This document shows positions 5,235 to 61,745 of a DNA stretch of 64,000 bases, piece by piece. Position 1 is the stretch's first letter, and each line of letters begins with the position of its first letter. A program made the position numbers and the translations under genes. A model generated the notes under the pieces. That model was not told the DNA's origin. It made no database searches and saw nothing but the letters and a program-made list of their open reading frames with translations. The DNA is from Zygnema cylindricum (taxonomy: Eukaryota; Streptophyta; Zygnematophyceae; Zygnematales; Zygnemataceae): NCBI GenBank assembly GCA_037447655.1, contig JBBHKE010001432.1, forward strand, positions 94,018 to 158,017, written 5' to 3'.

Positions 5235-5305
5235 CGGCCGGATTTGAACCGGGGTCTGTAGGCTACTATATAGAGCAGCGCCTTATCCATTAGGCTACTA
5301 TCGAA
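5235..5305 (-). other. tRNA-like module in LTR, antisense to the element
   Basis: On the minus strand there is a perfect A-box TAGCCTAATGG (5298-5288) and a perfect B-box GGTTCAAATCC (5251-5241). The D stem GCC...GGC pairs, an anticodon-like stem GCTGCT/AGTAGC pairs with a 6-nt loop, and a T-arm-like CCGG stem is present. The acceptor stem does not pair, so it is not a canonical tRNA gene. The body most resembles tRNA-Arg. Confidence 0.75.
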
Positions 5306-5782
5306 ACGATACATGTGAGACGTTTCACGCATATTTAGCTATTGATTCAAAGGACTAATTCGCAGCAGACTAACGAAAACGCGCATTAATCAATTGATAC
5401 ATGGAAGCGAATCGAAGCCGTATAAATACAATTGATCGGACGGCCACCATTACAGCCGCCACCCGCAATAAGCTTTCGGCGGCCTTTGGGGATAGCGTTA
5501 AGCGGTGCCACGTGGCACCACATTATTTGACACCGGAGAAGATGGGAGGAGGAACCATGGCTCCCGATTTGGCACATGTCACCTTGTAGACCATGTCGTA
5601 CAATGACCGTACAATAAGTACATCGCCCATCGTACCTTCTTGTACTATATAGTGTTCTTATTGGACTAGGGTTTAGTAGTAGGTAGTCATGAGTAGGCAG
5701 ACTAAGACTTAGAGATATTTCGGTACCTCTCTTTAAGAGAGCTTGTAACTATAAAGGTCATTTTTGACCAGCCATAACTTAA

Positions 5783-5854
5783 TGCTCGGGTGAGCAAATT
5801 CAGTGATTCTTTTTGCTGCGGACTCAGGGGAGTCCAAGCTACACAAGGGTGTAG
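5783..5854 (+). other. Three serial NRGG-loop hairpins near LTR 3' end
   Basis: GCTC-GGGT-GAGC (5783-5794), GGACTC-AGGG-GAGTCC (5820-5835) and CTACAC-AAGG-GTGTAG (5839-5854). The same three positions form hairpins in the other LTRs with different stem sequences but the same loop type; see findings. Confidence 0.7.
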
Positions 5855-6127
5855 TCGGTCAAAGTCTTTGCGTGCCAGGGTGACACTTATTCAGTGGGAA
5901 AGTCAATTGGGGAATATTGTCCAAAACACATATTGAAGCTTTGCATTTTGTGGTGGAACTGAGCACACAGAAGGTCTTCTCTTCACAGGGGTGACGGTAT
6001 ATTGGGTTCTTATTGTCAAGGGATCATTTATTTGGGTTTATATCAACTTGGAGTCGGCACTATCTAGATTAGCTTCTTTTGGATCTGCGAATTCTGTGGG
6101 CAATGGAGCCCATAGAATTTCAGGATC

Positions 6128-6775
6128 TTGTTGAGCCACCCGAGAATAATGAAAGTTTTGAAAATGACAAAATCGCAATTGTGTGTCTGTACGGGCGGAC
6201 GCCGATGATAAAATCTAGTAGCGTCACGCTATTGTACAATATGTACGTCTTTGTATTTGTCGTTGTACAAACGGTTATGAAAACGTTACAAAATGAAAAT
6301 TTGTCCAAATGTCCATGAATGTACCACTTGTACGTTCATGTATTATCGCTATACCAGCGGAAGCGTGACAGGATGTCCTACAACCAAGTTTTCGTCGTCG
6401 AATAGGGTGGTTTTGATGTTAGAAGGTACACGCCATTTGCCACATGTAAGTTTATAACTTTACGCCCGTCGTGGATCGACTCTGATTTTTACAAGTGGAC
6501 TAATACACGCGTCCAGTAAGCGCAAAGTGTCCTCTTGAGGACCGTCAGAGGAGACTAGCCAGATACTGGATACAAGGGGCGTTTGCGTCGAAAATTCGAA
6601 ATCGGACAGTGGAAATATTCGCCAAAAAGTATGGAGAATCTTAACGAAGTTATTGTAAACATCTTTTGTAAATAAAAAAAACAAAAACAATACGACTTAG
6701 TACGGAAAGGTACTTTCTTCAGTAAACAACCCCACTTTTTGCCTGATGGAAGGTTACCCTTAGGGTGAACTTCCA
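6128..6775. other. Intergenic, partial fold-back copies
   Basis: No gene is recognised. A fragment at about 6700-6745 (CAGTAAACAACCCCACTTTT) is the outer arm of the fold-back element seen intact at 7646-8036, so this interval holds pieces of older copies of that element. Confidence 0.4.
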
Positions 6776-20117: not shown

Positions 20118-21187
20118 TGTAGAAATTGATGGTTCCTTTTTTTAAGTATTTTCTAGGTCTAAATTATAATGCAGAAAGAAGCCGAGGCAGTCTATCACAA
20201 ACTTCTCTCTACAACTCCCACACTTGTCGCAGTCACTGGGAAGTTGGAGTGGAAGCTAGAGCCATGGCTGCCTAGTCTATCCAGAGGTTTACGGGGAATA
20301 GATTAGTTTATATTTACCGATAAGTTTATTTACTAAAAGGTTAGATGCCGGATCCAGGATTTGATCCTGGTACCTGCGGAATGTTAGATAGCCGGTAGCT
20401 GGTAGTCCTAACCGTTAAGTCTAAGACTAATGTTATATGATATAGGGTTTGATATTTATTTAAATATTATTAGGTAGGATAATTCATTTAACTGCAACTG
20501 TTTACGGGATAGATAGACCCAGTTATGTAAAAGTACGGATTACGGTATGTATAAGAAACTAGTACCGCGCATTTATTTCTTTAACGAAACAAATACCGCG
20601 CATGTATTTATGACGGCTAGGATTGAAATTTGCATTCAATCGGACGGCCGGGAAGAAAGCCGAGATCGCGGAAGAGAATCTCGCCGGTTTGAGGTCATTG
20701 CCACATCGGATGACACGTGGCAAAATTACGTTGGATCGCGGCATCCCCTGGGATTACGGTACCGAATCCGGATATGACATGTGTCAATTTTTAGGCCATG
20801 TCGTACAGTTTCCGTACAGAAAGTAAACCGGCAACTTTACGTTTGTGTACGGAAGTGTAATATGATTGGTTCCGTACATCAGTAGAAAGAGTTTGTGAGA
20901 GAGATAGGACTTAGAAAAAAATGGTAGATAGGACCCTCTCTCACAGAGAGCTTATGTACAAAAGGTCAACTTTGACCCTCCATGACTTACTGCTCAAGGG
21001 AGCAAATTCAGAGATTCTTTTTGCTATTGACGTAAGGGAGTCTTGCCTTCACAGGGGGAAGGTGGTCAGAGTTTTTTGTTTGCCAGGGTGGCAATTATTC
21101 TTGCTGAAACACAAATGGGTAAGGGTTATCCTAGAGGCTTCTTGGAAGCTGTCCACTTTGAGTACTTATGGAGGTCTCTGAGTTTCA
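20118..21187 (+). repeat. 5' LTR of element A
   Basis: 1070 bp, TG...CA. Contains the antisense tRNA-like module (20348-20430), a GACACGTGGC G-box-like site near 20714, hairpins at 20992-21003 and 21029-21062 (the latter two weakened by mutation) and the gag ATG at 21168, 20 nt before the end. Confidence 0.95.
20348..20430 (-). other. tRNA-like module in LTR (antisense)
   Basis: Minus strand: A-box-like TAGACTTAACGG (20423-20412) and B-box-like GGATCAAATCC (20368-20358) in a CCAGGATCAAATCCTGG arm. Confidence 0.6.
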
Positions 21188-22109
21188 GGTTTTGGGCCCA
21201 CCCTCTAAGGTACCCATCTTTAATGGAATTGGCTTCATTGACTGGGAAAGTATGATGATAGGAGCTCTATGCGAGAAAAGGTTTTGGGGGATAGTGAGTG
21301 GACGAGTGGGGCGTCCATCAAGTCTTGGAGTCCCTCCAGGGTTTGGAGGAAGCAGATTCACAAGGAAAGCAGATCCATCTTCAACGGAGGAGATAATAGA
21401 AGGAGAGGTGGTGGACAAAGCAGCGGAGAAGGAGACGACCTCACCAACAGCAAATGGTTCAGCATTCTTGTCACCTTTTTCGAGGAACGAGGAGAATGAT
21501 AATGATACATGGGACTTCAACAATATGGCGACAAAACACTTCATCCTCCGCTATCTTACTCAAGGGCTTGCATGTTCTCATTTGCAGGTAGAAAGGGCAT
21601 CCGATCTTTGGATGGCTCTCATAGAGATGTACCGAAGTGGTAAGATTCATCAACAACAGTTCGCTAATCAGAAAATTAAGGAGTATGTATACAAAGGGGG
21701 GAAGATGTTGGATTTTTGCAACGAGCTTGCTAAACTTTTCATGGAGCTAGAGAGTGTTGGAAAAGATTTTAGTGACAAAGAAAAGGTTGACTGTTTACTG
21801 ATGAAGTTACCTGAAGAGTTCGAGTACATAGTCAGCCGTGTGCAAGACTCGTGGGACTCAAGGTGGATATGGAACTCAGTGGTAGGGATGATTCTCGTTC
21901 GGGAGAATACGATTGAGATCCGAAGGGGAGGAAAGAGTGGGCAAGCCTTGGCAGCTGCGACCGATTGGAGGAACAAGGATTCCCGGAAACCGGTCGGAAA
22001 TATGGGGGGAGGGAGCAAAAATATCAGACCGACGAGTTCGGTCCAAGTGCTCCCAAAGGTTTATGTCATTTTTGTAAGAAACCGAGCACTATATGGCATA
22101 GTGCACTAA
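21168..22109 (+). pseudogene. Copia gag of element A, frame broken near the zinc knuckle
   Basis: The ATG at 21168 is inside the LTR. The open frame of 313 codons reads across the LTR end and the primer-binding site, then into the copia gag N-terminus (VPIFNGIGFIDWESM ... KRFWGIVSG) and the UBN2-type body (LTQGLACSHLQVERASDLW). The zinc knuckle begins LCHFCKKP in another frame at about 22060 but has lost the following GH and last Cys, so a frameshift and point changes break it. In intact relatives Gag forms the particle and binds the RNA. Confidence 0.88.
21189..21202 (+). other. Primer-binding site (initiator tRNA-Met anticodon arm)
   Basis: GTTTTGGGCCCACC differs by one base from GTTATGGGCCCACC, the complement of the plant initiator tRNA-Met anticodon stem-loop. 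It starts 2 nt after the LTR. Confidence 0.7.
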
Positions 22110-22299
22110 GCTAACCGAGCTTTGGTTAAAGGAGGGGCAGACAGGTGGAACCCCGTGAGGAAAGAAAAAGGCCCTTGTGAGACAGGTACATGAGGTGGAA
22201 TCCGAGGACGAGGACGATGAGGTCCTATTGGATGAGGAGTTGGAGGCGAAAATCGAGGTCGAAATTCCACGAAGGCAGAAATGTGCTTACGGTGGATAA

Positions 22300-25200
22300 A
22301 AAGGTGAAGCAAGTTGGATTGTAGATTCATGTGCCTCCATGCACATGTGTAAGGATAAGCACCAGTTCACTAAGATAAGAAAGATTCTCACCATAGAGAT
22401 AGAGTACGGGGATGGGAGGATAGTCACTACTACTCTTGTAGGATCGGTAGATCTGAAAGTGTTAGTAGAAGGAAACACATCTATAGTAACATTCTCCGAT
22501 GTATTGTTTATTCCGGAGCTGAACAAAAACCTCATCTCTACATCTGTATTAGATGATAAGGGTTTTTTTACTAGCACTAGGGAAGGAGTCTTTACTGCTA
22601 GTTTTGAGGAAGAGGTCTATTTCATTGTTGAGAAAAGTAGCTTTGGGATGTTTGGGCTGATTTTAAGTAATGAAACAAAAAAACTTTATTATGCTAGTGT
22701 TCATGATATTATGATGTGGCATAAGAGGCTTGGGCATGTGAATCTAGATAAGTTAAGAGAGATGAAAAAGATGGGAGTGGTAGAAGGGATTTAGTTCAGT
22801 GAGAGTGATAATATAAGTGATTGTAGTGGATGTGCTCAAGGTAAAGCACACAGATTACCCTTTCCCAAAACAACCACTTACAAGGGAGAAAAATTTATAG
22901 ATTTAGTACACACGGATATTTGGGGACCGGCTAAAGTGCCCTCACCGGGGGGGAAGAGATTTATGATGACTATCACTGATGATTGGTCTCGGTATTCCAG
23001 GGTGTATTTTTTGAATAACAAGTCCGAAGCTCAAGATTTTTTTAGACAATATACAGCATTGAGCAAAAAACTCCATGAAACTCCAATCAAGAGAGTAAGG
23101 AGTGACAATGGTGGAGAGTATACTTCTAACCAGTTTGAGGATTTTTTGAGGGAAGATGGAGTCCAACACCGAAAGACAGTTCTAAAAAACCCAAAACAGA
23201 ATAGGGTTGCTGAAAGATTAAATAGGACACTAAGTGATAGTGCTAGAAGTATGTTGTTGGACAAGAAGATAGGAAAAAAGTTTTGGGCAGAAGCAATGAA
23301 CTGTGTTAATTACCTCAAAAATAGAGTTCTTACTTCAGCTATAAAAAAGATCAAACACCTTATGAGAGATAGACAGGCCGGAAACCAGACATATCTCACT
23401 TAAAGGTTTTCGGCAGTCAAGTATTCAGTCTAGATACAGATCGGTCTAATTGGAAGCTAGATCTTAAAGGAAAACTGGGATACTTATTAGAATATGATGG
23501 GGATGTTAAAGGATATACAATTTATGATCTAAAAAGGGAAGATATAATCTTAGTAAAGCATCTAGTAGTTATGGATGAAGGAAAGTCTGTGGATCCCTTC
23601 AAGTATACAAAGTCAGTAAAAATCATATTTGAGTCAGAAAATTCCGATGACTTTTAACTTCCTTACTATCTAGGTTTTAGAGAAGATGACATTCTTGCAG
23701 GTACAAATCAGATCGAAAAGAACTCGGTTGCGGAAACTCCAGTGACAACTCTACCCGAAGCGGAAGACGTGGTGGAAACTGAATCGGAATCAAGGGATAG
23801 GGGAGAAGCCGAGATAGTTCGAAAGAACCCCCGAGAACCATCTATTCCGACCTCAGATTTTGAGGGGGGAAAGAGAAGTAGCAAAAGATTGCAGGAAAAA
23901 CATGTTAATAACAAGGTAACAATACTATCTCATCAAGATGAACCTCAGACTTATAGAGAGGCGATGACTTGCCCAGAAAGAAACTGGTGGAAGACAGCCA
24001 TCAATGAGGAGATGGCCTCAATTATGGCAGCCGATACTTGGGAGTTGGTGGATTGTCCACCTAACTGAAAACCAATCGGTTGTAAGTGGATTTTCAAATT
24101 AAAACTGAACCCAGATAACACAATTGAGCGTTGTAAAGCCCGATTAGTGGCAAATGGATTTACACAAAAGGAGGGAATTGACTACGAGGAAACCTTTGCC
24201 CCGGTCGTCAGATTTCCCTCCGTCCGCATACTTTTCAGTCTGGCAGCAGCGGAAGACATTGACGTGCAACAAATGGACATCAAGACAACCTTTTTGCATG
24301 GAGAATTGGAAGAGGAGATCTTCATGTGACAACCCAAAGGATTTGTGGAGGAAGGAGAGGAGAGTAAGGTATGCCGGCTGATTAAATCTCTTTATGGTTT
24401 GAAATCAACAGTGGAATAAAGTGCTTGATGAGTTTCTTACCGGTGAGGGGTATATCCGGATCAGCTCAGGTCACGCAATCTATGTTTTTGAAGATGAGGA
24501 AGGTATTATATTTATTGCAATTTATGTTGATGATTTGCTTGTTTAAAGTAAATCAATGGAAAAAATTAATAAACTGAAAACCAATCTTAAGGTGAGATTT
24601 GAAATGAAGGATATGGGGGAAGCAAAATATATTTTGGGAATTCAAGTAGAAAGAGACCGAAAAAGAAAGATTATAAGATTGACTAAAAAGGAAGCAATAG
24701 GGAACATGCTTGAAAAATTTCAGATGGATAAAGCAAATAGTTGTACAACTCCAATTGAGTTAAAGAAGGGAAGTGAGGGGAGTGAGGAAGAAGGAATCAT
24801 AGTCTTAGACGAGAAATTATCTCTTGAAGAACAGAAGTTCATGCAGACTATTCTTTACAGGCAAGTAGTGGGAAGTCTAATCTATTTTATGAATTGTACC
24901 TGACCGGATTTAGCTGCAGCTGTAGGAGTGCTGAGTAGAAGTCTAAATGCTCCTACTAAGAGGGATTGGGAGGCAGCTAAGAGAGTTCTTAGATATTTGA
25001 TAGGACCTAAGGATCTATGGTTGCATTTGGGTGGGGAGAATACTGACATCACCACTTGAGTGATACCAGTTATGGTGATGCTCCGATGAGGAGATGTACT
25101 TCTGGATATGTATTATATGTGGGTGATGGGGCTTGCTGTTGGAGTAGCAAACAACAAAAGTTTATTGCTCAGTCCACCATGGAGGTTGAGTATATGGCCT

Positions 25201-25517
25201 CTTGCTCTGCTGTAAAAGAATTGATGTGGGTCAAGTCTTTGCTTGGTGAGCTTGGTCACCTTAAGAGTGGTGTGCAATTTTTTTTTTGTGATAATCAGAC
25301 AACATTTGCTATTTTTGCCAATTTTAAACATCATTTTAAAGCCAAACATATGGACATTAGACTCAGCTTTGTTAGAGAGAAAGTAGAAAACAAAATAATC
25401 AGTTCAAAGTACCGACCAGATAGCGAGATGGTAGCATATATGATGACCAAACCTGTGCCTTCCCCTAAGCTAATTTTCTGTAGGGAGAAGTGTGGTCTAA
25501 AATTAAAGATTGACTAG
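22300..25517 (+). pseudogene. Copia pol of element A, multiple stops
   Basis: In order: protease with the active site changed to DSCAS (about 22320); pre-integrase MWHKRLGHV and CSGCAQGKAHRLPF (22717-22860); integrase core with DIWGP, SDNGGEY and NRVAERLNRT (22914-23230); reverse transcriptase QMDIKTTFLHGELEEE (24270-24315) and YVDDLL (24524-24541); RNase H with SKQQKFIAQST to KHMDIRLSFVREK (25147-25380). In-frame stops occur near 22792, 24066, 24327 and 24543, plus frameshifts between blocks. Confidence 0.93.
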
Positions 25518-25765
25518 AAAATAAGGGGAGTGTAGAAATTGATTGTTCCTTTTTTAATTATTTTCTAGGTCTAAATAAAAATGCAGAAAAAAGCCGAGGC
25601 AGTCTATCTCTAACTTCTCTCTCCAACTCCCACACTTGTCGCAGTGACTGGGAAGTTGGAGTGGAAGCTAGAGCCATGGCTGCCTAGGCTCTCCAAAGGT
25701 TAACGGGAAATAGATGAGTTTATATTTACCAATAAGTTTATTTACTAAATGGTTAGATGTCGTAA

Positions 25766-25848
25766 CCAGGATTTGATCCTGGTACCTGCGGAATGTTAGA
25801 TAGCCGGTAGCCGGTAGTCCTAACCGTTAAGTCTAAGACTAATGTTAT
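25766..25848 (-). other. tRNA-like module in LTR (antisense)
   Basis: Same A-box-like TAGACTTAACGG and B-box-like GATCAAATCC arrangement as in the 5' LTR of element A. Confidence 0.6.
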
Positions 25849-26401
25849 ATGATATAGGGTTTGATATTTATTTAAATATTATATCGTAGGATAATTCATT
25901 TAACTGCAACTGTTTACGGGATAGATAGACCCAGTTATGTAAAAGTACGGATTACGGTATGTATAAGAAACTAGTACCGCGCATTTATTTCTTTAACGAA
26001 ACAAATACCGCGCATGTATTTATGACGGCTAGGATTGAAATTTGCATTCAATCGGACGGCCGGGAAGAAAGCCTAGATTGCGAAAGAGAATCTTGCCGGT
26101 TTGTGGTCATCCCCGCATTGGATGATACGTGGCAAAATTACGTTGGATCGCGGCATCATTGGGGATTACGGTACCGAATCCGGATATGACATGTGTCAAT
26201 TTTTAGGCCATATCGTACAGTTTCCGTACAGAAAGTAAACCGGCAACTGTACTTTTGTGTACGGAAGTGTAATATGATTGGTTTCGTACATCAATAGATA
26301 GTTTGTGAGAGAGATAGGACTTAGAAAAAATTGGTAGATAGGACCCTCTCTCCCAACGAGCTTTTATACAAAAGGTCAACCTTGACCCTCCATAACTTAC
26401 T

Positions 26402-26473
26402 GCTCAGGGGAGCAAATTCAGAGATTCTTTTTGCTATCGACTCAGGGGAGTCTTGCCTTCACAAGGGTGAAGG
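26402..26473 (+). other. Three serial NRGG-loop hairpins
   Basis: GCTC-AGGG-GAGC, GACTC-AGGG-GAGTC and CCTTCAC-AAGG-GTGAAGG. The last stem has one more pair and a different sequence from CTACAC/GTGTAG in the solo LTR at 5028, with pairing kept. Confidence 0.7.
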
Positions 26474-26603
26474 TGGTCAGAGTTTTTTGTTTGCCAGGGT
26501 AGCAGTTATTCTTGCTGAAACACAAATGGGTAAGGGTTATCCTAGAGGCTTCTTGGAAGCTGTCCACTCTGAGGACTTATAGAGGTTTCAGAGTTTCATT
26601 GCG

Positions 26604-34427: not shown

Positions 34428-34441
34428 AAATTATGGAAGAA

Positions 34442-40160: not shown

Positions 40161-40645
40161 ATTTTGGTAATCTATCAATCTGTCTGCCTATCTGCCTGTC
40201 TGTCTGTTTCTTTCTGACTATGGCGGCAGCTATGGTGACTCTCTCTCTCTCTCTTCACTCTAGATTCTAAATTAAAAAGTGAATAATAATTACTTTTTTT
40301 CAACACTCCCCTTAATTCTTAGTCAAATTTTAATTAAAGTCCACAATTTTCTCTGCAAAATTTTAATTTAGGAGAAGGCACCGGTTTTGTCATCATGTCT
40401 GCAACCATCTCATTATCACCTTTATGAACCAGTTTATTTATTTTATTCTCAACCTTCTCTCTGATAAAGCTTAGTCTTATATCCATATGTTTAGCTGCGA
40501 TAGAGATAGTAGCTTGATTATCACAAAAGACATTAAGAGTCCCAGTTTTCATGAGCCCAAGTTCTCCGAGTAGAGATTTTACCCACATTAATTCTTTAGT
40601 GGCAGCACATGAAGCCATGTATTCAGCCTCAAGCCTTTTTTTCAA

Positions 40646-43341: not shown

Positions 43342-44409
43342 TTTAAAATTGATGTTCTTTTAGTATTTTCTAGATGTATAATAAAATGCAGAAAAGAAGC
43401 CAAGGCAGTTTGCCTCTAACTTCTCTCTTAAACTCCCACACTTGTTGCATTCACTGAAAGTCGGAGAGGATGCTAGAGCCATAGCTGCCTATGCTATCCA
43501 AAGATTTACGGGTAGTAGATTAGTTGATTTACGGTAATAAATTAGTTGATTTACTAAAAGTAGAGCTGTCGCATCCAGGATTTGATCCTGGTATCTACCG
43601 GCTCTCTAAGCCCCCGGTAGCCGGTAGCTCTATCCATTTAGTCTATGACTAGTGTTAGATTACGTAGTGTTTGATAATTAAATAAACATTACTACGCTGA
43701 AAAATTCATTTAACGGAAACTATTTACAGGATACATAGGTTCGATTGTGTAAAAGTACGGATTAAGGTACGGACAAGAAACAAGTACCGCGCATTTGTTT
43801 CGATAGCGAAATGAATACCACGCAGGTATTTATTACAGGTACGATTAAATCTACATTTAATCGGACGGCCGTAATGAATGCCGAGATTGTAGAAGAGGAT
43901 TATGGCGGCTTTTGGTCATCGCCACATCGGATGACACGTGGCAGAATGACATTGGATCGCGGCATCTCCGGAGATTAAGGAAGCGAATCCGGATATAACA
44001 CGTGTCAACATTTAGGCCATGTCGTAAAATATTCGTACATAAAGTACACCGACAGCTGTACTTTTGTGTACGAAAATGCGATATGATTGGTGCCTTACAT
44101 CAGTAGATAGAGTTTTACACAGAGATAGGACTTAGAAAAATTTGTTAGATAGGACCATCTCTCCTAGAGAGCTTCTGAATAAAAAGGTCAACTTTGACTC
44201 TCCATAACTAACTACTCAAGGAAGCAAATTCAGAGATTCTTCTTTCTATCCACTCAAGGGAGTCTTTCCTTCACATGGGTGGAGGTGGTCAAAGTTTTTG
44301 ACTGCCAGGGTGGTAGTTATTCTTTCTGAAACACAAAGGGGTCAGGGTTCTCTTAGAGGCTTCTTGCAAGCTATCCATTCTGAGGACCTATGAAGGTCTC
44401 AAAGTTGCA
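43342..44409 (+). repeat. 5' LTR of element C
   Basis: Antisense tRNA-like module 43571-43650, GACACGTGGC near 43934, hairpins 44252-44263 and 44268-44285, gag ATG at 44390 (20 nt before the end). Confidence 0.92.
43571..43650 (-). other. tRNA-like module in LTR (antisense)
   Basis: B-box-like GGATCAAATCC in a CCAGGATCAAATCCTGG arm at 43574-43591; A-box-like TAGACTAAATGG at about 43644-43633. Confidence 0.6.
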
Positions 44410-45528
44410 AGTTATGGTCCAACCCTCTTGGGTACCCATCTTTAATGAAGCTGGCTTCAAATACCTAGAAATTTTAATGACAGGAGCTCTATGCGAGAAA
44501 AGGTTTTGGGGGATATTGAGAGGACGAGTGGGGCATCCATCAAGTCTTGGAATCCCTCCAGGGTTAGGAGGAAGCAAATTCACAAGGAAGCAGATCCATC
44601 ATCAACAAAGGAGACAAAAGAAGGGAAGGTGGTGGACAAAGGAACGGAGAAGAAGACGACCACACCAATAGCAACTAGTTCGGCATTCATGTCACCTATT
44701 CCAAAGAATGAGGAAAATGATACTGATCCCTGGGACTTCAACAATATGGCGGCAAAGCACTTCATTCTCCGCCATCTTACTCAAGGGCTAGCATATCCTC
44801 ATTTGCAGGTAGAAATGGCATCCGTTCTTTCGATGGCTCTCATAGAGATGTACCAAAGTGGTACGATTCAGCAACAACAATTGGCTGATTAAAAAGTTAA
44901 GAAGTATGTATACAAAGGGGGGAAAATGTTGGATTTTTGCAATGAGCTTGCTACACTTTTCATGGAGCTAAAGAGTGCTGGAAAAGAATTTAGTGAAAAG
45001 GAAAAGGTTAACTGTTTACTAATGAAGTTACCTGATGAGTTCGGGAGCATCGTCAACCGTGTGCAGGACTTGTCGGACTCAAGGTGGATATGGAACTCAG
45101 TGGTAGGAATGATTCTCGTTCAGGAGAATACGATTGAGATCCGAAAGGGAGGAAAGAGTGGGCAAGCCATGGCAGATGGGACTGATTGGAGGAACAAGGA
45201 TTCTTGCAGACGGGTCAGAAATTACGGAGGTGGGGAGCAAAAAAATCAGACCAACGAGTTCGGACTAAGGGCTCCCAAAGGATTATGTCATTTCTGTAAG
45301 AAACCAGGGCACTATATGGCGGAGTGCACTAAGTTAACCGAGCTTCGGTTAAAGGAGGGGAAGACCAGTGGAACCCCGAGAGGAAAGAAAAAGGTCGTTG
45401 TGACACTGGTTCATGAGGTGGAATCAGAAGACGAGGCAATGAGCTCTTATTGGATGAGAAGTTGGAAGCGACAACGAGGTAGAAATTCCACGAAAGCAGA
45501 AATGTGCTTTCGGTGGATTGAAAGGTGA
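44390..45528 (+). pseudogene. Copia gag of element C, frameshift and stop
   Basis: ATG at 44390 in the LTR; MKVSKLQVMVQPSWVPIFNE reads over the LTR end and primer site. The frame shifts near 44590 into the run with WDFNNMAAKHFILRHLTQGL, meets a stop at 44890, then resumes 44926-45528 with LLMKLPDEF and an intact zinc knuckle CHFCKKPGHYMAEC (about 45286-45327). Confidence 0.9.
44411..44424 (+). other. Primer-binding site of element C
   Basis: GTTATGGTCCAACC; two differences from the initiator tRNA-Met anticodon-arm complement. Confidence 0.6.
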
Positions 45529-45529
45529 A

Positions 45530-48485
45530 GCAGGTTGGATTGTAGATTCAAGTGCCTCCATGCACATGTGTAAGGATAAAACACTGTTCACTATGATAAG
45601 AAAGATTCCCACCGTAGAGATAGAGTACGGGGATGGGAGGATAGTCACTACTACTCTTGTAGGATCGGTAGATCTGAAAGTGTTACTAGAAAGAAAGACA
45701 TCCATAGTTACACTCTCTGATGTATTGTTTATTCTAGAGCTGAACAAAAACCTCATCTCTACGTCTGTATTAGATGATAAGGGTTTTGATACCAGTAGTA
45801 CGAAAGGAGTCTTTACTGCTAGTTTTGAGGAGGAAGCTTATTTTACTGCTGAAAAAGGTAGCCAATGGATGTTTAGGCTGATTTTAAGCAATGAAAAGAA
45901 GAAACTTTACTATGCTGGTGTTCATGATAGAATGATGTGGCATAAGAGGCTTGGGCATGTGAATCGAGATAAGTTAAGATAGATGAAAAAGATGGGAGCG
46001 GTAGAAGGGATTAAGTTCGGTGAGAGTGAGAATCTAAGTAATTGTAGTGGATGTGCTCAAGGTAAAGTACACAGATTACCCTTTCCCAAAACAACCACCT
46101 ATAAGGGAGAAAAATTTCTAGATTTAGTACACAGTGATATTTGGGGACCGGCCAAAGTGCCCCCACGCGGGGGGAAGAGATTTATGATGACTATTACTGA
46201 TGATTGGTCTTGGTATTTCAGAGTGTATTTTTTGAAAAACAAGTCAAGATTTTTTCAGAAGCTCAGGATTGTTTTAGACAATATAAAGCATGGAGCGAAA
46301 GACTCTATGAAACTCCCATCAAGAGAGTAAGGAGTGACAATGGTGGAGAATATACTTCTAACCAGTTTGAGAATTTTTTTAGGGAAGATGGAGTCCAACA
46401 CTAAAAGACAGTTCCAGAAAACACGGAACAGAATGGGGTTGCTGAAAGATAAAATAGGACACTAAGTGATAGTGTTAGAAGTATGTTGTCTGATAAGAAG
46501 ATAGGAAAAAGGTTTTGGGCAGAAGCAATGTACTCAGCTAATTACCTCAAAAATAGAGTTTTTACTTCAGCTATAAAAGGTAAAACACCTTATGAGAGAT
46601 GGACCGGCCGGAAACCAGACATATCTCACTTAAAGATTTTCAGGAGTCAAGTATTCAGTCTAGATACACATCGGTCTAATTGGAAGCTATATCCTAAAGG
46701 AAAATCGGGATACTTATTAGGATATGATGAGGATGTTAAAGGATATAGAGTTTGTGATCTAAAAAGGGAAGATATAATCTTAGTAAAGCATCTAGTAGTT
46801 ATGGATGAAGGAAAGTCTGTGGATCCCTTCAAGTATACAAAGTCAGTAAAAATCATATTTGCGTTAGAAAATTCCGATGACTTTCAGCTTCCTAACTATC
46901 CAGGTTTTAGAGAAGATGACATATTGTAGATAAAAATCAGACCAAAAAGGCCTCGGCTGCGGAAACTCCAGTGACAACTCCACTTGAAGTGGAAGACGTT
47001 GTGGAAATTGATTCAGAATCAATGGACACCCGAAGTGGAAGACGTGGTGGAAATTGATTCAAAATCAATGGACAGGGGAGAAGCCGAGAGTGTTCGAAAG
47101 AACCCACGAGAACCATCTATTTTGGCCACAGATTTTGAAGGGGGAAGGAGAAGTAGCAAGAAAAACAGGTTAATAACAAGGTATCTAAACTATCTCATCA
47201 AGATGAACCTCAAACTTATGGAGAGGCGATGACTTGTCTAGAAAGAAACTGGTGGAAGACAGCCATCAATAAGGAGATGGCCTCAATTATGGCAGCCGAT
47301 ACTTCGGAGCTGGTTGATTGTCCACCTAACCGAAAACCAATCGGTTGTAAGTGGGTTTTCAAATTAAAACTTAACCCGAAAAACACCATTGAGCGTTACA
47401 AAGCCCGATTAGTGGCACAAATATTTAAGGAATCGACTACGAGGAAACCTTTGCCCCTGTCGTCAGATTTCCCTCCATCCACATACTTCTCAATTTGATA
47501 GCAGCAAAAAACATGGAGGTGCACCAGATGGACATCAATACAACCTTTTTGCATGGAGAATTGGAAGAGGAGATCTTCATGCGACAGCCCGAAGGATTTG
47601 TGGAGGAAGGAGAGGAGAGTAAGGTATGTTGGCTGATCGAATCCCTTTATGGTTTGAAACGTGCGCCACGACAGTGGAATAAGAAGCTTCATGAGTTTCT
47701 TACCGGCTTGGGATACATCTGGATCACCTCAGATCACTTAATCTACGCTTTTGAAGATGAGGAAGGTGTTATATTTATTCAATTTATTTTGATGACTTGC
47801 TTGTTTTAAGTAAATCAATGGAAAAAATTTAAAAACTGAAAACCGATCTTAAAAGGAGATTTGAAATGAAGGATATGGGGGAGGCAAAATATATTTTGGG
47901 AATTCAAGTAGAAAGAGACCGAGAAAGAAAGATTATAAGATTGACTCAAAAGGAAGCAATAATGAACATGTTGGAAAAATTTCAGATAGATAAAGCTGAT
48001 AGCTGTACAAGTCCAACGGAGTTAAATAACGGAAGTGACGCGAGTGAGGAAGAAGGAGTCATAGTCTTAGACGAGGAATTATCTCTTGAAGAACAGAAGT
48101 TCATGTAGACTATTTCTTAAAGGCAAGTAGTGGGAAGTCTAATCTATTTTATGAAATTGTACCCGGCCAGATTTAGCTGCAGCTATAGGATTGCTGAGTA
48201 GAAGTATAAATGCTCCCACTAAGAGGGATAGGGAGGCAGCTAAGAGAGTTCTTAGATTTGATAGGAATTAGGGATATATGGTTGCATTTGGGTGGGGAGA
48301 ATATTGACATCACTACTTCGAGTGATGCCATTTATGGTGATTCTCTGATGAGGAGATGTACTTCTGGATATGTAATATATGTGGGTGATGGGGCTTGTTG
48401 TTGGAGTAGCAAACAACAAAAGGTTATTGCTCTGTCCACCATGGAGGCTAAGTATATGGTGTCTTGCTCTACTTTAAAAGAGCGT
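45530..48485 (+). pseudogene. Copia pol of element C, multiple stops, RNase H cut short
   Basis: Protease site DSSAS (about 45546); MWHKRLGHV (45936-45962); CSGCAQGKVHRLPF (46044-46085); integrase SDNGGEY (46333-46353) and SDKKIGKRFWAEAM; reverse transcriptase HQMDINTTFLHGELEEE and YGLKRAPRQWNKKL (47502-47690); RNase H DGACCWSSKQQKVIALST until about 48485, where homology stops. Stops occur for example near 45980, 46402, 46449 and 48106. Confidence 0.92.
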
Positions 48486-48852
48486 GTTTTACTCTAGCAA
48501 TTCCTTCTTTGTTCCTACTAATTAGCAGCAAATCATCAACATACACAGCAATGAATATCACCTCATCAGGATTATCACCACACATCACATATACTGAATG
48601 ATCTGAACTAATTCTAGTAAATCCTAATCCTGTCAAGAACTCATCTAACTTTCGGTTCCATTGCCTAGGGGCTAGTTTAGGCCATACAATGATTTTAATA
48701 GTCTGCACACAAGATTTTCTTTTCCTGCTTCCTCATAACCCTTTGGCTGCTTCATATAAATGACCTCATCTAAATCACCATGCAAAAATGCAGTTTTGAC
48801 ATCCATTTGGTGGATGTCAAAATCCTCTATGGCTGCTTATGTAAGTAAGATG
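48486..48852 (-). mobile_element. Inverted reverse-transcriptase fragment of a different copia lineage
   Basis: Minus strand reads [38 protein letters not shown] and AVYVDDLLLISRNKEGIA, the central part of a copia reverse transcriptase. Wording differs from the surrounding family ([19 protein letters not shown]), so it comes from another lineage. It fills the space between the cut RNase H of element C and its 3' LTR. Confidence 0.85.
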
Positions 48853-49910
48853 TGTAAAAATTGATGATTTGTTTAGTATTTTCTAGGTCTAAAATAAAAT
48901 ACAGAAAAGAAGCCAAGGCAGTCTGCCTCTAACTTCTCTCTTGAACTCCCACACTTGTAGCAGTCACTGAAAGTCGGAGATAAAGCTAGAGCCATGGTTG
49001 CATATGCTATCCTGAGATTTACGGGTAATAAATTAGTTGATTTACTAATTTACTAAAAGTAGAGCTGTTGGAAGCACGATTTGGTCTTGGTACCTACCGG
49101 CCGCCAGAGCTGCCGGTAGCCGGTAGCTCTATCCATTTAGTCTATGACGAGTGTTAGATTATATATGGTTTGATATTTATATAAACATTTATTCCCTGAC
49201 AAATTCATTTAACGGTAACTATTTGCAGGATAAATAGATTGGGTTATGTAAAAGTACGGATTAATGTACGGACAGGAAACAAGTACCGTGCATTTGTTTC
49301 GATAGTGAAACGAATACCGCGCAAGTATTTATTACGGCTACGATTAAAATCTGCATTTAAATCGGACGGTCGGAATGAATGTCGAGATCGCGGAAGAGGA
49401 TTTCGGCGGTTTTTGGTCATCGCCACATCGGATGACACGTGGCAGAATGACATTGGATCGCGGCATCTCCAGAGATTAAGGAAGCGAATCCGGATATAAC
49501 ACGTGTCAAGATTTAGGCCATGTCGTAAAATATCCATACATAGAGTACACCGACAACTCTACTTTTGTGTACGCAAATGCGATATGATTGGTGTCGTACA
49601 TCAGTAGATAGAGTTTTAGAGAGAGATAGGACTTAGAAAAATTCCTTAGATAGGACCCTCTCTCCCAGAGAGCTTCTGTATAAAAAGGATAACTTTGACT
49701 CTCCATAACTAATTGCTCAAGGGAGAAAATTCATAGATTCTTTTTTCCATCAACTCAAAGGAGTCTTGCCTTCACAAGGGTGGAGGTGGTCAACGTTTTT
49801 GTCTACTAGGGTGGTAGTTATTCTTGGTGAAACACAAAGGGATCAGGGTTATCCTAGAGGCTCGTTGAAAGCTGTCCATTTTGAGGACCTATGGAGGTTT
49901 TAGAGTTGCA
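48853..49910 (+). repeat. 3' LTR of element C
   Basis: 1058 bp; antisense tRNA-like module 49066-49150, GACACGTGGC near 49434, hairpins 49753-49764 and 49769-49786. It is not preceded by the usual polypurine tract. Confidence 0.92.
49066..49150 (-). other. tRNA-like module in LTR (antisense)
   Basis: A-box-like TAGACTAAATGG is kept on the minus strand; the B-box arm is damaged here (GGTACCAAGACCAAATCG). Confidence 0.5.
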
Positions 49911-50990: not shown

Positions 50991-51991
50991 TGCAATTTTG
51001 TGTCCTCTAATGAACTACAAAATTCGGGAGCCTCTAGATAGTTTTTAACTAGCCCACTTTCAGCCAGAATCACTACTGCCCTAGCAAAAACATTTATAGT
51101 CTAACTACACTCCTATGCAGCTTCGACTCCCTTGAATCCGTAGAAAAAAAAATCACTGAAAACGGCCAACCAACCGATAAGTTATGAGGCAGTAAAGATG
51201 ACAATCTTTTATACAAGCTCTCTAGGAGAGAGGTACTACCTACCCAAATTTCCTAAGTCCTAAAAGCCCTCTCACAACCCCTATCTACTGAAGTACACTC
51301 TAATCAGGAGACTGTAAAGTACAGAAAAGTACAGTGGCCGATGTACTCTCTGTACGTCCTGTGTAAGACAAGACCATGGAGTGGACGCCTGTCGCCTTCG
51401 GACTCGTCCTCCTGTCGTCTGGGATTCGCGCTGCTCATTTCTATTGTGCCACGTATCACCAGGTCACGTCATGTCCATAAACCGCCAAAGTAACCATTCT
51501 TCGACCTCGGCGATGATTTGCGTCGTCCAATGAAGATCGACTTTTTATATACGCCGTCGAAATAAATGTCTGATACATTTGTTTTTCGTGCGGCGGATTT
51601 GATGCCCGCACTGAATCTAACATGTTTCTATGTTCACTCCCTCGTAGTTTAGTTAATTGGACTAATGTTCATATGAATGTTTAAATAAAAATCGTTTGTA
51701 CTGCTTCTACGACAGACCGGTAAGAGCTGACGGCTACGTCTCGCTTTGCTGGTTGGAGGTTCAAGTCTTGTTGGACTCAACCTTTTGTTGAGAGTGACTT
51801 ATGTCATTCTTTAGTCTTACTTGTGGATCTAAGGCAGCCATGGCTCGATCACCCTCTCTAGCCTTCAGTGACTAGAACAAATATGGGGGCTAGAGAGAGG
51901 AGGTGGAGGCAAGCTGTTCGCCCTTTTTTTTTCCTATTTTGCTAATCTATTTAGACCTAGAAAATACCCTATAAATCTAATGTTTTCAACA
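50991..51991 (-). repeat. 3' LTR of element D
   Basis: Hairpin positions 51105-51120 and 51125-51138 (weakened by mutation), tRNA-like module on the plus strand at 51712-51785. gag ATG position reads ATT here. Confidence 0.92.
51712..51785 (+). other. tRNA-like module in LTR D (antisense to the LTR)
   Basis: B-box GGTTCAAGTC at 51758-51767; A-box-like region around GACCGGTAAGAGC (51715-51727). Confidence 0.55.
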
Positions 51992-57766: not shown

Positions 57767-58348
57767 ATAGAAAAAGGAATCACTAAAAAAGGCCAACCAG
57801 CCGATAAGTTATGAGGTAGTAAAGATGCCATTCTTTTATACAAGCTCTTTGGGAGAGAGGTGCTACCTGCCTAAATTCCCTAAGTCTTAAAACCCCTCTC
57901 ACAACCCCTATTTACTAAAGTACTCTCCAATCAAGAGATTGTAAAGTACAAAAAAGTACAGTGGTCGGTGTACTTTGTGTACAGCCTGTGTACGACAAGA
58001 CCATGGAGTGGACAGGTGTCGCCTTTGGACTCGTCAACATGTCCTCCGGGATTATTGCTGCTCATTTCTATCGTGCCATGTATCACCAGGTCACGCCACG
58101 TCCGTAAACAGCCAAAGTGATAATTCCAGGACCTCGGCGAAGAAAAGCGCCGTCGGATGAAAATCGACTTTTTATACACGTCATCGAAATAAATGTCTGA
58201 AACATTTGTTTCGTGCGGCGGATTTGATGCACGCACTGAATCTTACATGTCTCTATGATCACTCCCTCGTAGTTTCGTTAATCGGAATAATGTTCATATT
58301 AATGTTTAAATAAATATCCTATCCCATGTACTGTAAAGAACTTCCATG

Positions 58349-58425
58349 ACAGATCGGTTAGAGCTGACGGCTACACCTCATTTTGCCGGTCGGAGGTTTG
58401 AGTCTTGTTGGACTCAACCTTTTGT
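58349..58425 (+). other. tRNA-like module in LTR D (antisense to the LTR)
   Basis: A-box-like GATCGGTTAGAGC and B-box-like GGTTTGAGTC, same positions as in the 3' LTR. Confidence 0.5.
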
Positions 58426-58890
58426 TGAGAGTGACTTATGTCACTCTTTAGTCTTGCCTGTGGAGCTAAGGCAGCCATGGCTCAACCACCCTTTGTAATC
58501 TTTAGTGACTACAATAAGTAAGGAGGCTAGAGAGAGGAGGTGGAGGCAAGCTGTCCGCCCTTTTCTTTTCCTATTTTGCTAATCTTTTTAGACCTAGAAA
58601 ATACCCTATAAACCTAGTATTTTCAACAACATGACACATCATACGATTTTGTGAGATTGTGTGTCCTTGTACATATTTAGAGCAACAATGGTTTCTCTTA
58701 AGTATATTAATAATTTTGTGTTGATTATGACGATTCTATTTAGGTGATCAATTAGGGTTTTGACAATTTAGTTTATGTGTGTGCAATATCGTACTTGTAG
58801 ACAAGTGTACGCCTACCATTGCTTGACTCTCAAGTGTACGCCTACGATTAGTTTTCTTTTACTAGGAGGTTATTATGCTTAAATATGACT

Positions 58891-59139
58891 TAGTAATTTT
58901 TTGGTCTTGGATTTGTCGAGAGGAGAGGGCCCATGTGGCAGATCTGTGTGGGTAGAGACGGAAGGGAGAGGGAGACGGTGAGGAGGAGGAGGGCGGAGAA
59001 GAGGGAGAGGAAGGAGGAAGCCATGGCTGCCTTTTTGCCTTTTGAGAGCTTTGAGGTGGAAGAGAGAGAAAAAAGAGTCACGAAAAGGGGAGGGAGGGGA
59101 AGGGGAGGGTAAGATTTCAAATGAAAATGAGGAGGAGAC
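58891..59139. other. GA-rich insert between E2 and element G
   Basis: About 240 bp, purine-rich on the plus strand. On the minus strand an ATG at about 59024 opens a short Ser/Leu-rich frame ([20 protein letters not shown]) that looks like a signal peptide, but CT-rich DNA gives such peptides by chance and the frame runs into E2 and stops. Confidence 0.3.
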
Positions 59140-61447
59140 GTAACATTGTGGTCTCCATTAGCACACAGTGTTTGCAGCTTACTACTAGCCTCAAAGATAT
59201 TTTTTTCCCTTTTCTCTTCCTTGCTGAATAAGTGCCACCTTGGCACACAAATATTTTTACCACCCTTACCTCTATAAGGGCTCTACTCACCTGAGCCGAA
59301 CGCAAAAAGAATTATTGAATTTGCTCCCCTGAGCAATAAGTTATGTTTGGTCAAATATTACCTTTATAGTTACAAGTTCTCTCAGAGAGAGGTGCTTAAA
59401 TATCACTAACTACTCACAACTACCTACAACTAAACCCTAGACCAATAAAAACATTGTACAATACAAGAAAGTACAGTGGTTGATGTACTTCTTGTATGGC
59501 CATTGTACGACATGGCCTTGCAGGTGACGCCTGTCAGATCGCGAGCCATGGTTCCTCCTCCAATCTTCTCTGTTGTCCAATAATGTGGCTCCATGTGGCG
59601 ACTCGTGACGCCGTATCCAAAAATCGCCAAAAGTTCATTCTCGGTTGGCGACTGCAACGATGACCATCCGATCAATATATTTTACATGGTTTGAATCGGG
59701 TCCATATTCCATCAGTTTATATGCCCCTTTTCATCAATTTGTTTAGTTAAATAAGTTAGGCGCCATGTCACTGTTTAGTTTCTTTAGTTAAATGAGTTAG
59801 GCGCCACGTCACTGTTTAAATACATATCACACCCTGCGTTTGTAATGATTCTTCAACAACTAGTAGGATAAGGCGAACGTAATGATTCTTCTACGACTAG
59901 ACGAATAAGGGGGATGGCTGGTTGGAAGGCAATAAATTTGTAGGACCAGGATCAAATCTTGGTCAAGTCTGATATTTTTTGGTAGACGCTAAACTTCCTT
60001 CTCCCTCAGTCTGTCTCTTCGGCATCTAAGGGCAACCATGGCCGTCTAAGTCTTATTGACTGCAACAAGTATATATACTTAGAGTACCATCTAAAATAGA
60101 CAACTAAAACATGCTTTTCAACACTCCTTTTATTTTATAGTCTATCTTTTTTTTTAAACAACTCTTTTCTCTGCAAAATTATAACTTTGGAGATTGAACA
60201 GGTTTTGTCATGATATTTGCTACCATTTCCCCATATGGTCTATATTCCAATTTTTAGTCACTCAGATTTTCACTTTTTCCAAACTGAATTCCTTCCACTA
60301 CTCCCATTTTTTTCATTTCTTTTAATTCATCTAAATGCACATGTCCAAGCCTCATATACCATAACAGAATATCATGAACACCAGCATAATAAAAATTGTT
60401 TTTTTCATTGCTTAAAATAAACCTAAATATCCCTTGGCTACCTTTTTCAGCAGTGAAATTAACTTCCTCCTCAAAACTACCAGTAGAGACTCCTTTCTTA
60501 GTGCTAGTTTCAAAACATAAATCATCTAACACAGATGTGGAGATGAGGTTTTTATTCAACTCAAGAATAAACAATGCATCAGAAAATGTAACTATAGATG
60601 TTTTTCCTTCCACTAACACTTTCACATCTACCGATCCTACTAAAGTAGTAGTGACTACCCTCCCATCCACGTACTCTATCGCTACGATGGGAATCTATCT
60701 CATTTTGTGAACATGTGTTTATCCTTACACATGTGCATAGAAGCACCTGAATCCACAATCTAACCAGCTTCACCATTCTACGACTGTAACTGCTTTCAGA
60801 CAAAACGAGAGACTTAAAAGGTGTTAAAAAGTTATCATTGGCCTATTTAATGGTACTTTAGGACCTGCTTAGAATTAAGTAGTTGCAATGATACCCGTCA
60901 CGGAGCACCGGACATTCTTAGTATGGGATTGTCTGAATTTCCCATGGAATTTCGACCCCGATCTTCACCTCCTTTTCCCATCCAAAAAGTTCATCGTCCT
61001 CGGATTCCTCCTCATGTATTTGCATCACAAGGGCCTTCTTCTTTCTTTTCGGAGGTCCAATCTGCCCCTCTTTCAACAAGAGTTTAGCTAGTTTAGAACA
61101 CTCTGCCATAGAATGCCCCGGTTTATTAGAAAAGTTACACAATCCTTTTGATTCCCTCGGTCCAAAATCATCGGACTGATTTTTCTGTTCTCCTCCTCCA
61201 TAGTTTCCAACCAATTTTCTAGGATCTTTATTCCTCTAATTAGTCCCGGTTCACAAAGCTTGTCCACTCATTCCTCCCTTCTGGATCTCTATGTTATTCT
61301 CTCGTACAAGAATCATCCCTACCACAGACTTCCAAGTCCACTAAGAGTCCGGCAAGTCTTCCACACAGTTAACTATGTTTTTGTAGTCATCGGGTAACTT
61401 AATGAGTTGGGAGTTAACCTTCATCTTTTCAGTTTCTAGCTGTCCAA
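59140..61447 (-). mobile_element. Copia element G, internally deleted, cut by element F
   Basis: Minus strand: gag (61447-60918, QLIKLPDDYKNIV; knuckle with second Cys changed: CNFSNKPGHSMAEC), protease/pre-integrase (60670-60254, LRLGHVHLDELKEMKK), then a deletion that joins the integrase start to the RNase H end (MVANIMTKPVQSPKL, about 60235-60190), polypurine tract and LTR 60123-59140. The upstream gag is interrupted by the insertion of F at 61447/61448. LTR hairpins at 59263-59280, 59286-59295, 59322-59333. Confidence 0.9.
59895..59970 (+). other. tRNA-like module in LTR G (antisense to the LTR)
   Basis: B-box-like GGATCAAATCT at 59949-59959 in an ACCAGGATCAAATCTTGGT arm; the A-box part is decayed (ACTAGACGAATAAGG). 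Confidence 0.5.
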
Positions 61448-61661
61448 TGTAGAAATTAATGGTTCCTTTAGTATTTTCTAGGTCTAAACATGTATTATTA
61501 AATGCAGAAATGAAGTAGAAACACACTGCCTCTAACTCCTCTCTCTAACTTTCACACTTGTCGCAGTCGCTGAAGGTTAGAGAAAAGCTAGAGCCATGGC
61601 TGCTTGTACTGACCATAGAGAGACAAGTAGTAGTTTCTGGTAGGTTTACCAAAAGTTACTT

Positions 61662-61745
61662 GCCGGACCTAGGATTTGATCCTGGCTCCTACCATCCGTC
61701 AAAGTCCACCGTAGTAATTAGCTTTATCCTATTGACTAGGACCAA
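61662..61745 (-). other. tRNA-like module in LTR F (antisense)
   Basis: Minus strand B-box-like GGATCAAATCC in CCAGGATCAAATCCTAGG (about 61686-61669); A-box-like TAGTCAATAGG at about 61738-61728. Confidence 0.6.

What the first reader, a model, noticed from the sequence alone, without database searches (positions are those of the whole stretch)
5235..61745. Every copia LTR with an intact first third carries an antisense tRNA-like module
At the same place in each LTR (roughly 200-310 bp from its start), on the strand opposite to the element, there is an A-box-like and a B-box-like motif about 50-60 bp apart, with a T-arm-like palindrome around the B-box. Copies: 5235-5305, 20348-20430, 25766-25848, 34584-34665, 36564-36650, 40086-40160, 43571-43650, 49066-49150, 51712-51785, 58349-58425, 59895-59970, 61662-61745. 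The only LTR lacking it is the 5' LTR of B, which is truncated there. A- and B-boxes are the internal RNA polymerase III promoter of tRNA genes (established). Plant Cassandra elements carry a 5S rRNA gene in their LTRs (established); an antisense tRNA-like module in autonomous-type copia LTRs would be an analogous but distinct case. Inference: it may drive antisense Pol III transcripts against the LTR, act as a boundary, or derive from an ancestral tRNA/SINE capture.
Basis: partly seen in the sequence, partly recalled or inferred. Interest (0 to 1): 0.87.

Follow-up and report, generated by a model that had tools for sequence, protein, structure and literature searches.

The report
Backwards tRNA-derived promoter in copia LTRs
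In the genome of what is probably a desmid-like green alga, copia jumping genes carry, backwards inside their end repeats, the remains of a tRNA-Arg gene whose promoter letters and stop signal have been kept while the surrounding DNA diverged, so these elements may make a small RNA against themselves or use the tRNA machinery for another purpose.

Summary
All 12 modules are at the stated places, and the LTR said to lack one is truncated. Of 61 LTRs recognised by their other half, 57 carry the module antisense to the element; the other four are truncated, overwritten or deleted there. The modules span 17 LTR clusters, median pairwise identity 0.56. Against externally defined motifs, A-box + B-box + T4 occurs antisense in 15 of 17 representatives, sense in 0 of 17, and in 1.5% of shuffles. 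A T4 run, the Pol III stop signal, follows the module in 15 of 17. Seven of the 11 slowest module columns are universal tRNA invariants. The donor is probably host tRNA-Arg(ACG): two LTR modules match it at 28 of 32 bases. No cloverleaf or acceptor stem survives. Best reading: a selectively kept Pol III transcription unit of about 100 nt, antisense in U3 of protein-coding copia elements. Closest known: Helenus and Cassandra, which are coding-free TRIMs. Transcription and function are untested. I saw no sign that the module is an insertion target. The A-box is less clearly conserved than the B-box.

The parts
5222..5313 (-). Most tRNA-like module of the window (LTR L5k): A-box 5287-5297, B-box 5240-5250, T4 terminator 5222-5225
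   Evidence: best Rfam family of a 151-nt scan is tRNA, 18.4 bits, below the gathering score of 29; 24 of 27 nt to host tRNA-Arg(UCG); 26 of 32 to tRNA-Arg(ACG) nt 7-38, shuffle maximum 17
20335..20437 (-). Module in 5' LTR of element A: A-box 20412-20422, B-box 20357-20367, T4 20335-20338
25757..25849 (-). Module in 3' LTR of element A: A-box 25824-25834, B-box 25769-25779; no T4
34578..34669 (-). Module in 3' LTR of element B: B-box 34596-34606, T4 34578-34581
36557..36657 (+). Module in minus-strand LTR R36: A-box 36572-36582, B-box 36626-36636, T4 36654-36657
40074..40165 (+). Module in minus-strand LTR R40: A-box 40090-40100, B-box 40137-40147, T4 40162-40165
43556..43659 (-). Module in 5' LTR of element C: A-box 43634-43645, B-box 43578-43588, T4 43556-43559
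49055..49158 (-). Module in 3' LTR of element C; B-box decayed (7 of 10), T4 49055-49058
51695..51786 (+). Module in minus-strand LTR R51: B-box 51758-51768, T4 51783-51786
58332..58423 (+). Module in minus-strand LTR R58: B-box 58395-58405, T4 58420-58423
59878..59980 (+). Module in minus-strand LTR R60: B-box 59949-59959, T6 59975-59980; a second A-box-like stretch lies about 37 nt further upstream
61651..61752 (-). Module in LTR F61: A-box 61728-61738, B-box 61672-61682, T4 61651-61654
20118..26598 (+). Element A, a protein-coding copia element with modules in both LTRs (LTRs 20118-21187 and 25531-26598; 5-bp TSD TTGCG)
   Evidence: LTR pair about 93-94% identical; ends and TSD read; gag PF14223 in 21162-22109 and integrase PF00665 in 22795-23403
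29325..35335 (+). Element B; 5' LTR truncated at about 29325 by (GAT)n so its module is missing; 3' LTR carries it
   Evidence: RVT_2 in 32682-33362 and SH3 domain in 31983-32681; truncation
43342..49910 (+). Element C, copia with modules in both LTRs; 5-bp TSD TACAG
   Evidence: (LTR pair 86-89% identical), gag PF14223 in 44893-45528

Best explanation
An ancestor of this copia lineage acquired a tRNA-Arg(ACG) gene, or its transcribed part, antisense in the U3 part of its LTR. Since then the element families have diverged to about 56% LTR identity, but a Pol III transcription unit has been kept: an AT-rich upstream stretch, A-box, B-box and a T4 terminator just after the former tRNA end. It most likely gives a short (about 100 nt) antisense RNA that begins and ends inside U3, so that it is complementary to the 3' end of the element's own mRNA. 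Shown: position, strand, tRNA origin, slow evolution of tRNA-invariant letters, terminator at near-constant place. Inferred: that Pol III transcribes it, and why it is kept. My preferred reason is cis-acting: TFIIIC/Pol III occupancy keeps U3 open or insulated. An antisense regulatory RNA is a close second. The middle of the predicted RNA is not conserved in sequence or fold, which favours selection on the transcription unit over selection on the RNA.
For: 57 of 61 LTRs. A + B + T4 antisense 15 of 17, sense 0 of 17, shuffles 1.5%; with B 10/10: 12 of 17, 0 of 17, 0.06%. T4 within 30 nt after the module: 15 of 17 representatives and 50 of 56 copies, against 0.24 and 0.20 of other windows of the same LTRs, and A4 in the same window in 4 of 17 and 9 of 56. 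Twelve strict tRNA invariants evolve at mean rate 0.64 against 1.30 for the other 74 module columns, none of 100000 permutations as low; the six outside the T-arm alone give p 0.001. Best Rfam family of the L5k module is tRNA on the antisense strand. Donor tRNA-Arg(ACG) exists in the host; modules L084 and L093 match 28 of 32 nt, L5k 26 of 32. Ungapped match to that tRNA piece beats the sense strand in 11 of 17 representatives, ties in 5, loses in 1, and has shuffle p below 0.05 in 6 of 17. A profile of 33 host tRNAs scores 5 of 17 representatives on the antisense strand (16.0, 12.0, 11.3, 5.7, 3.2 bits), 0 of 17 on the sense strand; best of 1700 shuffles 5.0. AT content peaks (0.80-0.87) 33-48 nt upstream of the A-box in 16 modules; host tRNA genes are AT-rich there too. 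The tRNA-Arg(UCG) D-arm has its best antisense match at the module's A-box place in 11 of 17. A family with 98-100% identical LTR blocks carries it (L098).
Against: No expression data. A-box not slow in the whole-LTR alignment (189th of 349). The module as a whole evolves faster (mean 1.21) than the LTR 3' half (0.95). 12 of 17 representatives score nothing with the host tRNA profile; combined empirical p over all 17 is 0.08. 11 of 17 have p above 0.05 against the tRNA-Arg(ACG) piece. No tRNA match in the whole-window Rfam scan up to E 10. No acceptor stem; the only consensus pairs are three of the T-arm; folding z-scores of 8 window modules run from -3.2 to +0.4. TATA-like strings upstream in 7 of 16 modules, control 0.18, host tRNA genes 22 of 30. 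The near-identical pair in L098 has a changed B-box letter (GGTTGAAATCC). U8 and U54 columns are not slow. The D-arm match scores are mostly within the shuffle range. 24 of 65 consensus units in 264 kb lie outside known modules.
Confidence: 0.6

Rival explanations
1. TFIIIC-only site: the module is a binding platform (insulator or barrier, like extra-TFIIIC sites) and is not transcribed.
For: The B-box is the best kept part; the RNA itself is not conserved in fold.
Against: The T4 stop signal is kept 2-6 nt after the module in 15 of 17 lineages, and the invariants outside the T-arm are slow as a set (p 0.001); neither is needed for B-box binding alone.
Confidence: 0.2
2. Decaying relic: a tRNA gene or tRNA-derived SINE inserted into an ancestral LTR and is carried along by descent without function.
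For: The tRNA fold and acceptor stem are gone; most modules are not recognised by tRNA profiles; the module mean rate exceeds that of the LTR 3' half.
Against: tRNA-invariant letters evolve at half the rate of the other module columns; boxes and terminator persist in lineages with 56% LTR identity.
Confidence: 0.12
3. Landing pad: Pol III factors at the module attract the copia integrase, as Pol III genes attract Ty1 or Ty3, so that elements nest in each other.
For: Pol III targeting is known for copia elements of yeast (PMC5911963, passages seen); nesting is common here.
Against: Of 65 LTR 3' ends examined 41 are not followed by PBS or internal sequence; by my reading 15 of these lie in family sequence, 3 of them in LTRs and 2 within or about 50 bp from the module: no enrichment. 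Small sample.
Confidence: 0.05
4. The palindrome is a sense-strand element (RNA hairpin or Pol II factor site) that resembles a B-box by accident.
For: The T-arm is palindromic; another LTR motif (CCATGGCTGCC) is as conserved without any tRNA link.
Against: Letters match tRNA invariants, including loop positions; at the second stem pair 9 of 19 are G-U and 1 A-C on the antisense strand, i.e. mismatched on the sense strand; two modules match tRNA-Arg(ACG) at 28 of 32 nt.
Confidence: 0.03

Closest known systems
Helenus (TRIMp3; Kojima 2024, PMC10886601; parts 1-4 of 6 read, plus found passages)
   Same: tRNA-derived sequence with conserved boxes A and B inside LTRs; mostly not a functional tRNA; fungal members are mobilised by copia and most use the anticodon loop of a tRNA, often iMet, as primer, which the PBS here also resembles (iMet sequence recalled, not checked in the host).
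   Different: Helenus are coding-free TRIMs of 311-1263 bp; here LTRs of about 0.9-1.07 kb flank gag, integrase or RT domains. The module is antisense and has its stop signal inside U3. The held main text has no 'antisense', I saw no statement on orientation of the tRNA part, and the author expects autonomous partners not to share long LTR stretches with TRIMp3.
Cassandra (PMC10853983, abstract start and passages seen; described in PMC10886601)
   Same: Pol III promoter from a small RNA gene inside LTRs of a plant-lineage element.
   Different: 5S rRNA and not tRNA; drives the element's own RNA; non-autonomous.
tRNA-derived SINEs (SINE2; recalled)
   Same: tRNA-derived head with A and B boxes.
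   Different: The module sits at one place in LTRs and carries a T4 just after the tRNA part; I saw no SINE body, but ran no dedicated SINE search.
Ty1/Ty3-type Pol III-targeting elements (PMC5911963, passages seen)
   Same: Copia/gypsy elements linked to Pol III.
   Different: They insert beside Pol III genes; here the Pol III signals are inside the LTR and no insertion bias was seen.

Membership tests
Helenus / TRIMp3 | tRNA-derived sequence with boxes A and B in the LTR | tested here: met
Helenus / TRIMp3 | TRIM: short, no coding sequence | tested here: not met
   Element A has gag and integrase, B has SH3 domain and RVT_2; even the 3.1-kb-spaced family L098 has gag and zinc-knuckle matches below Pfam's cut-off
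Helenus / TRIMp3 | tRNA-like part drives the element's own (sense) RNA | tested here: not met
   Module antisense in 57 of 61 LTRs; the two best hits on the sense strand are modules of inverted neighbours. That Helenus is sense-oriented is my inference; not stated in what I read
Cassandra | 5S rRNA-derived sequence in the LTR | tested here: not met
   No Rfam family at gathering score in the window
Functional tRNA gene | Cloverleaf recognised by tRNA finders | tested here: not met
   ARAGORN 0 in the window and in 20 further 10-kb loci and in the module loci L061-L075 and L084-L099
Type 2 Pol III transcription unit | A-box, B-box at tRNA-like spacing, T4 terminator | tested here: met
   15 of 17 representatives; 11 of 12 window modules have T4
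Type 2 Pol III transcription unit | Transcribed by Pol III | not testable with these tools
   No RNA or ChIP data
Ty1-copia LTR retrotransposon | copia gag, integrase, RT; LTR ends TG..CA; 5-bp TSD | tested here: met
   Pfam PF14223, PF00665, PF07727, spread over elements A, B and C; element A ends TGTAG..TTTCA with TSD TTGCG

The most novel reading that the evidence does not exclude
Coding copia elements have domesticated a tRNA-Arg(ACG) gene as an antisense Pol III unit in U3 and kept it by selection through a deep radiation. Each integrated LTR, including solo LTRs, then works as a small antisense-RNA gene against the element family, or as a Pol III barrier for its own promoter: self-control or self-protection by Pol III, which to my knowledge is not described for any autonomous LTR element.
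Probability: 0.45. Interest if true: 0.82.

Novelty: new variant of a known kind. Interest (0 to 1): 0.64.

Why it matters
Pol III promoters in LTRs are known from short elements that use them to copy themselves (Cassandra shown; Helenus and Ajax inferred by their author). Here the promoter points the other way, in elements that code for proteins, and its stop signal keeps the transcript inside U3. That separates Pol III in LTRs from self-transcription and gives a direct test of whether a transposon can use Pol III to restrain or shield itself. It also warns that tRNA-like hits in such genomes may be LTR parts.

Tried and rejected
Loose A/B-box scanning without terminator: not discriminating. 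Gappy local-alignment coverage as a conservation measure: no peak at the module. RNA fold conservation: only three T-arm pairs. Whole-tRNA alignment of each representative to host tRNAs: L5k is clear (42 against shuffle maximum 29); rep 40 (34 against 30) and rep 28 (32 against 28) modest; reps 20, 52 and 60 only 1-3 points above their shuffle maximum; the remaining 11 not above. D-arm 19-mer matching: scores mostly within the shuffle range. Semi-global gapped 32-nt identity: poor statistic (antisense 17.3, sense 15.2, p 0.20), replaced by an ungapped count, which lowers L085 from 28 to 26. Landing-pad idea: no enrichment in a small sample. Primer idea: the PBS resembles the complement of tRNA-iMet, not of the module (iMet recalled). 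SINE origin: 6 module hits outside the LTR list in 264 kb; one is an LTR, the other five were not followed. Genome-wide copy number: the pattern GGATCAAATCCTGG did not complete. Host identity: a protein search on the AP2 ORF gave 14 hits; Closterium sp. Yama58-4 has the highest identity (73% over 26% of the query), while six hits with better E-values, five of them named grass proteins, have 42-58%.


Full report
Setting. The window lies in a 352.8-Mb assembly of 2689 contigs. An AP2-domain ORF at 15151-17559 has its highest-identity named hits in Closterium sp. Yama58-4, 73% over 26% of the query; six hits with better E-values, five of them named grass proteins, have 42-58%. A desmid-like streptophyte alga is likely; this is inference. 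The window holds 13 copia LTRs, eight on the plus and five on the minus strand. Elements A, B and C have LTR pairs around internal regions, in which Pfam finds copia gag (A, C), integrase (A), SH3 domain and RT (B) in the ORFs that I gave it (9 ORFs). Element A shows complete ends and a 5-bp target duplication.

Observation. All 12 modules are real, antisense, and have boxes 42-57 bp apart. To sample independently of the module I built a profile of the LTR 3' half and searched the window plus 20 stretches of 10 kb fetched around copies of family A (264 kb, enriched for family A). 61 hits had 620 nt of upstream sequence. 56 gave their best module hit on the antisense strand and one more was found on inspection: 57 of 61. 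The four without are truncated (B's 5' LTR), overwritten by a neighbouring LTR (two) or deleted on the B-box side (one). At 80% identity the 56 form 17 clusters, 35 of the copies in one of them; median pairwise identity of representatives is 0.56.

Is it more than chance? Loose box matching is not informative. With externally defined consensus (recalled) and a T4 run required within 35 nt, 15 of 17 representatives pass on the antisense strand, none on the sense strand, and 1.5% of shuffles do; demanding a perfect B-box gives 12, 0 and 0.06%. Of all 56 copies 41 pass antisense and 0 sense. Over all 264 kb, 65 such units were found, 41 of them inside known modules and 24 outside. By my count about 11 of the 24 are one recurrent place of family A LTRs and three coincide with extra module hits; the rest are stray matches.

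Terminator. The sense strand reads AAAA just upstream of the module in otherwise poorly alignable sequence. On the antisense strand T4+ begins 2-6 nt after the module in 15 of 17 representatives and 50 of 56 copies. Other 30-nt windows of the same LTRs hold T4 in 24% and 20%, and the opposite-strand run (A4) occurs in 4 of 17 and 9 of 56. Among 29 further modules found by pattern, 27 have T4 within 35 nt of the B-box. Host tRNA genes in the sample have T4 within 25 nt in 18 of 31, and none in the up to 50 nt examined in 9 of 31, so T4 is common but not universal behind host tRNA genes.

Conservation. In the whole-LTR alignment (23 sequences) windows at the B-box and at a CCATGGCTGCC motif are the slowest of 349 windows of the 5' part; the A-box is 189th. 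In a module alignment scored on a tree from the LTR 3' half (18 sequences; c20 dropped, its A-box is gone), 11 of 86 columns have rates below 0.6. Seven of these are strict tRNA invariants (A21, U33, G53, U55, C56, A58, C61); the other four are next to them (20a, C32, A34, G52). A14 (0.73), G19 (0.78) and G18 (0.98) are below the module mean of 1.21; U8 and U54 are not slow; the LTR 3' half averages 0.95, so the module as a whole is not slow. Twelve strict invariants average 0.64 against 1.30 elsewhere (none of 100000 permutations as low), and the six outside the T-arm alone give p 0.001. The tRNA numbering is recalled knowledge. In most families the D-arm has one extra base, so the U8/G10 register is ambiguous. 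The C32-U33-A34 triplet, at the spacing that it has in tRNA and present as C in 53, T in 56 and A in 55 of 57 copies, is not a promoter element known to me; I cannot explain its retention.

Origin. Rfam's best family for the L5k module, scanned alone, is tRNA on the antisense strand, D- and T-arm only, below the gathering score; the whole-window scan at E up to 10 lists no tRNA. RF00005 scored 63 tRNA genes in the host out of 24620 first-look candidates; I cut out 32 and ARAGORN recognised 31. L5k matches tRNA-Arg(UCG) at 24 of 27 nt. A pattern from recalled plant tRNA-Arg(ACG) found 41 places with up to 2 mismatches and 0 backwards controls. Of the fetched ones, six are tRNA-Arg(ACG) genes by ARAGORN; the others are not called tRNA, and nearly all have the L5k-type flank and terminator of LTR modules. 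The best (L084, L093) match host tRNA-Arg(ACG) nt 7-38 at 28 of 32 without gaps, L061 27, L5k 26; apart from L5k these were found by tRNA-like patterns, so they are selected for similarity. Among the 17 unbiased representatives the same piece matches with shuffle p below 0.05 in 6. A profile of 33 host tRNAs scores 5 of 17 on the antisense strand (three clearly, two near the best shuffle), none on the sense strand; combined over all 17, p is 0.08. So the donor is tRNA-Arg, most likely ACG; most families have drifted to where mainly the boxes, the anticodon-loop triplet and the terminator remain.

Carriers. Besides A, B and C, the L5k family has modules about 3.0-3.1 kb apart in several contigs. 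L098 has two LTR copies with blocks 98-100% identical around gag and sub-threshold zinc-knuckle matches only, in the three ORFs tested, so a recently active, apparently gag-only family carries the module too.

Mechanism. The predicted unit reads from about LTR position 310 to 200. A TATA-like TATAAA stretch of the element's own promoter lies about 500 bp further into the LTR (by eye). The antisense RNA would therefore lie in U3 and be complementary to the 3' end of element mRNA. A relic, a B-box-only site and a landing pad each fail to account for at least one of: invariant-site rates, terminator, insertion map. Whether the gain is open chromatin, insulation or an antisense brake cannot be decided from sequence.

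Known work. Searches of the held open-access library returned Helenus and Cassandra as the closest; none of the listed titles and abstract starts describes an antisense tRNA-derived Pol III unit in coding copia LTRs. Subscription journals are mostly absent from that library and Repbase was not searched; the Helenus paper says that 'not a few' LTRs in Repbase contain a sequence similar to a part of tRNA, so relatives may exist there. In a paper on Closterium genomes (PMC10407611) a search of the main text found no 'LTR', 'Copia' or 'retrotransposon'.

Noticed in passing
window 20262-20272 (A5 LTR; homologous place in other LTRs): CCATGGCTGCC, with the B-box the slowest 11-bp motif of the LTR 5' part, nearly palindromic AGCCATGGCT; role unknown.
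   Followed up: partly
module alignment A2 columns 42-44 (tRNA C32-U33-A34): CTA triplet kept (C 53, T 56, A 55 of 57 copies) at tRNA spacing from the D-arm although it is not a Pol III box known to me.
   Followed up: partly
L098 (G000:C205:60300-64300); matches at C205:60790, 63890, 66990: Three modules exactly 3100 bp apart, which looks like a tandem LTR-internal-LTR-internal-LTR array of a young, apparently gag-only copia derivative.
   Followed up: partly
window 21188-21206 and after the other 5' LTRs: PBS reads like the complement of the tRNA-iMet anticodon arm, i.e. half-tRNA priming as in Drosophila copia (tRNA recalled).
   Followed up: no
window about 59840-59920 (R60): A-box-like stretch present twice, about 37 nt apart, on the antisense strand of this LTR.
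   Followed up: no
window 20713-20722 (A5 LTR): ACACGTGGCA, a G-box-like motif (name recalled), conserved across families.
   Followed up: no
window 9400-17600: GA-rich stretch with an AP2-domain ORF (15151-17559) and long purine repeats.
   Followed up: no
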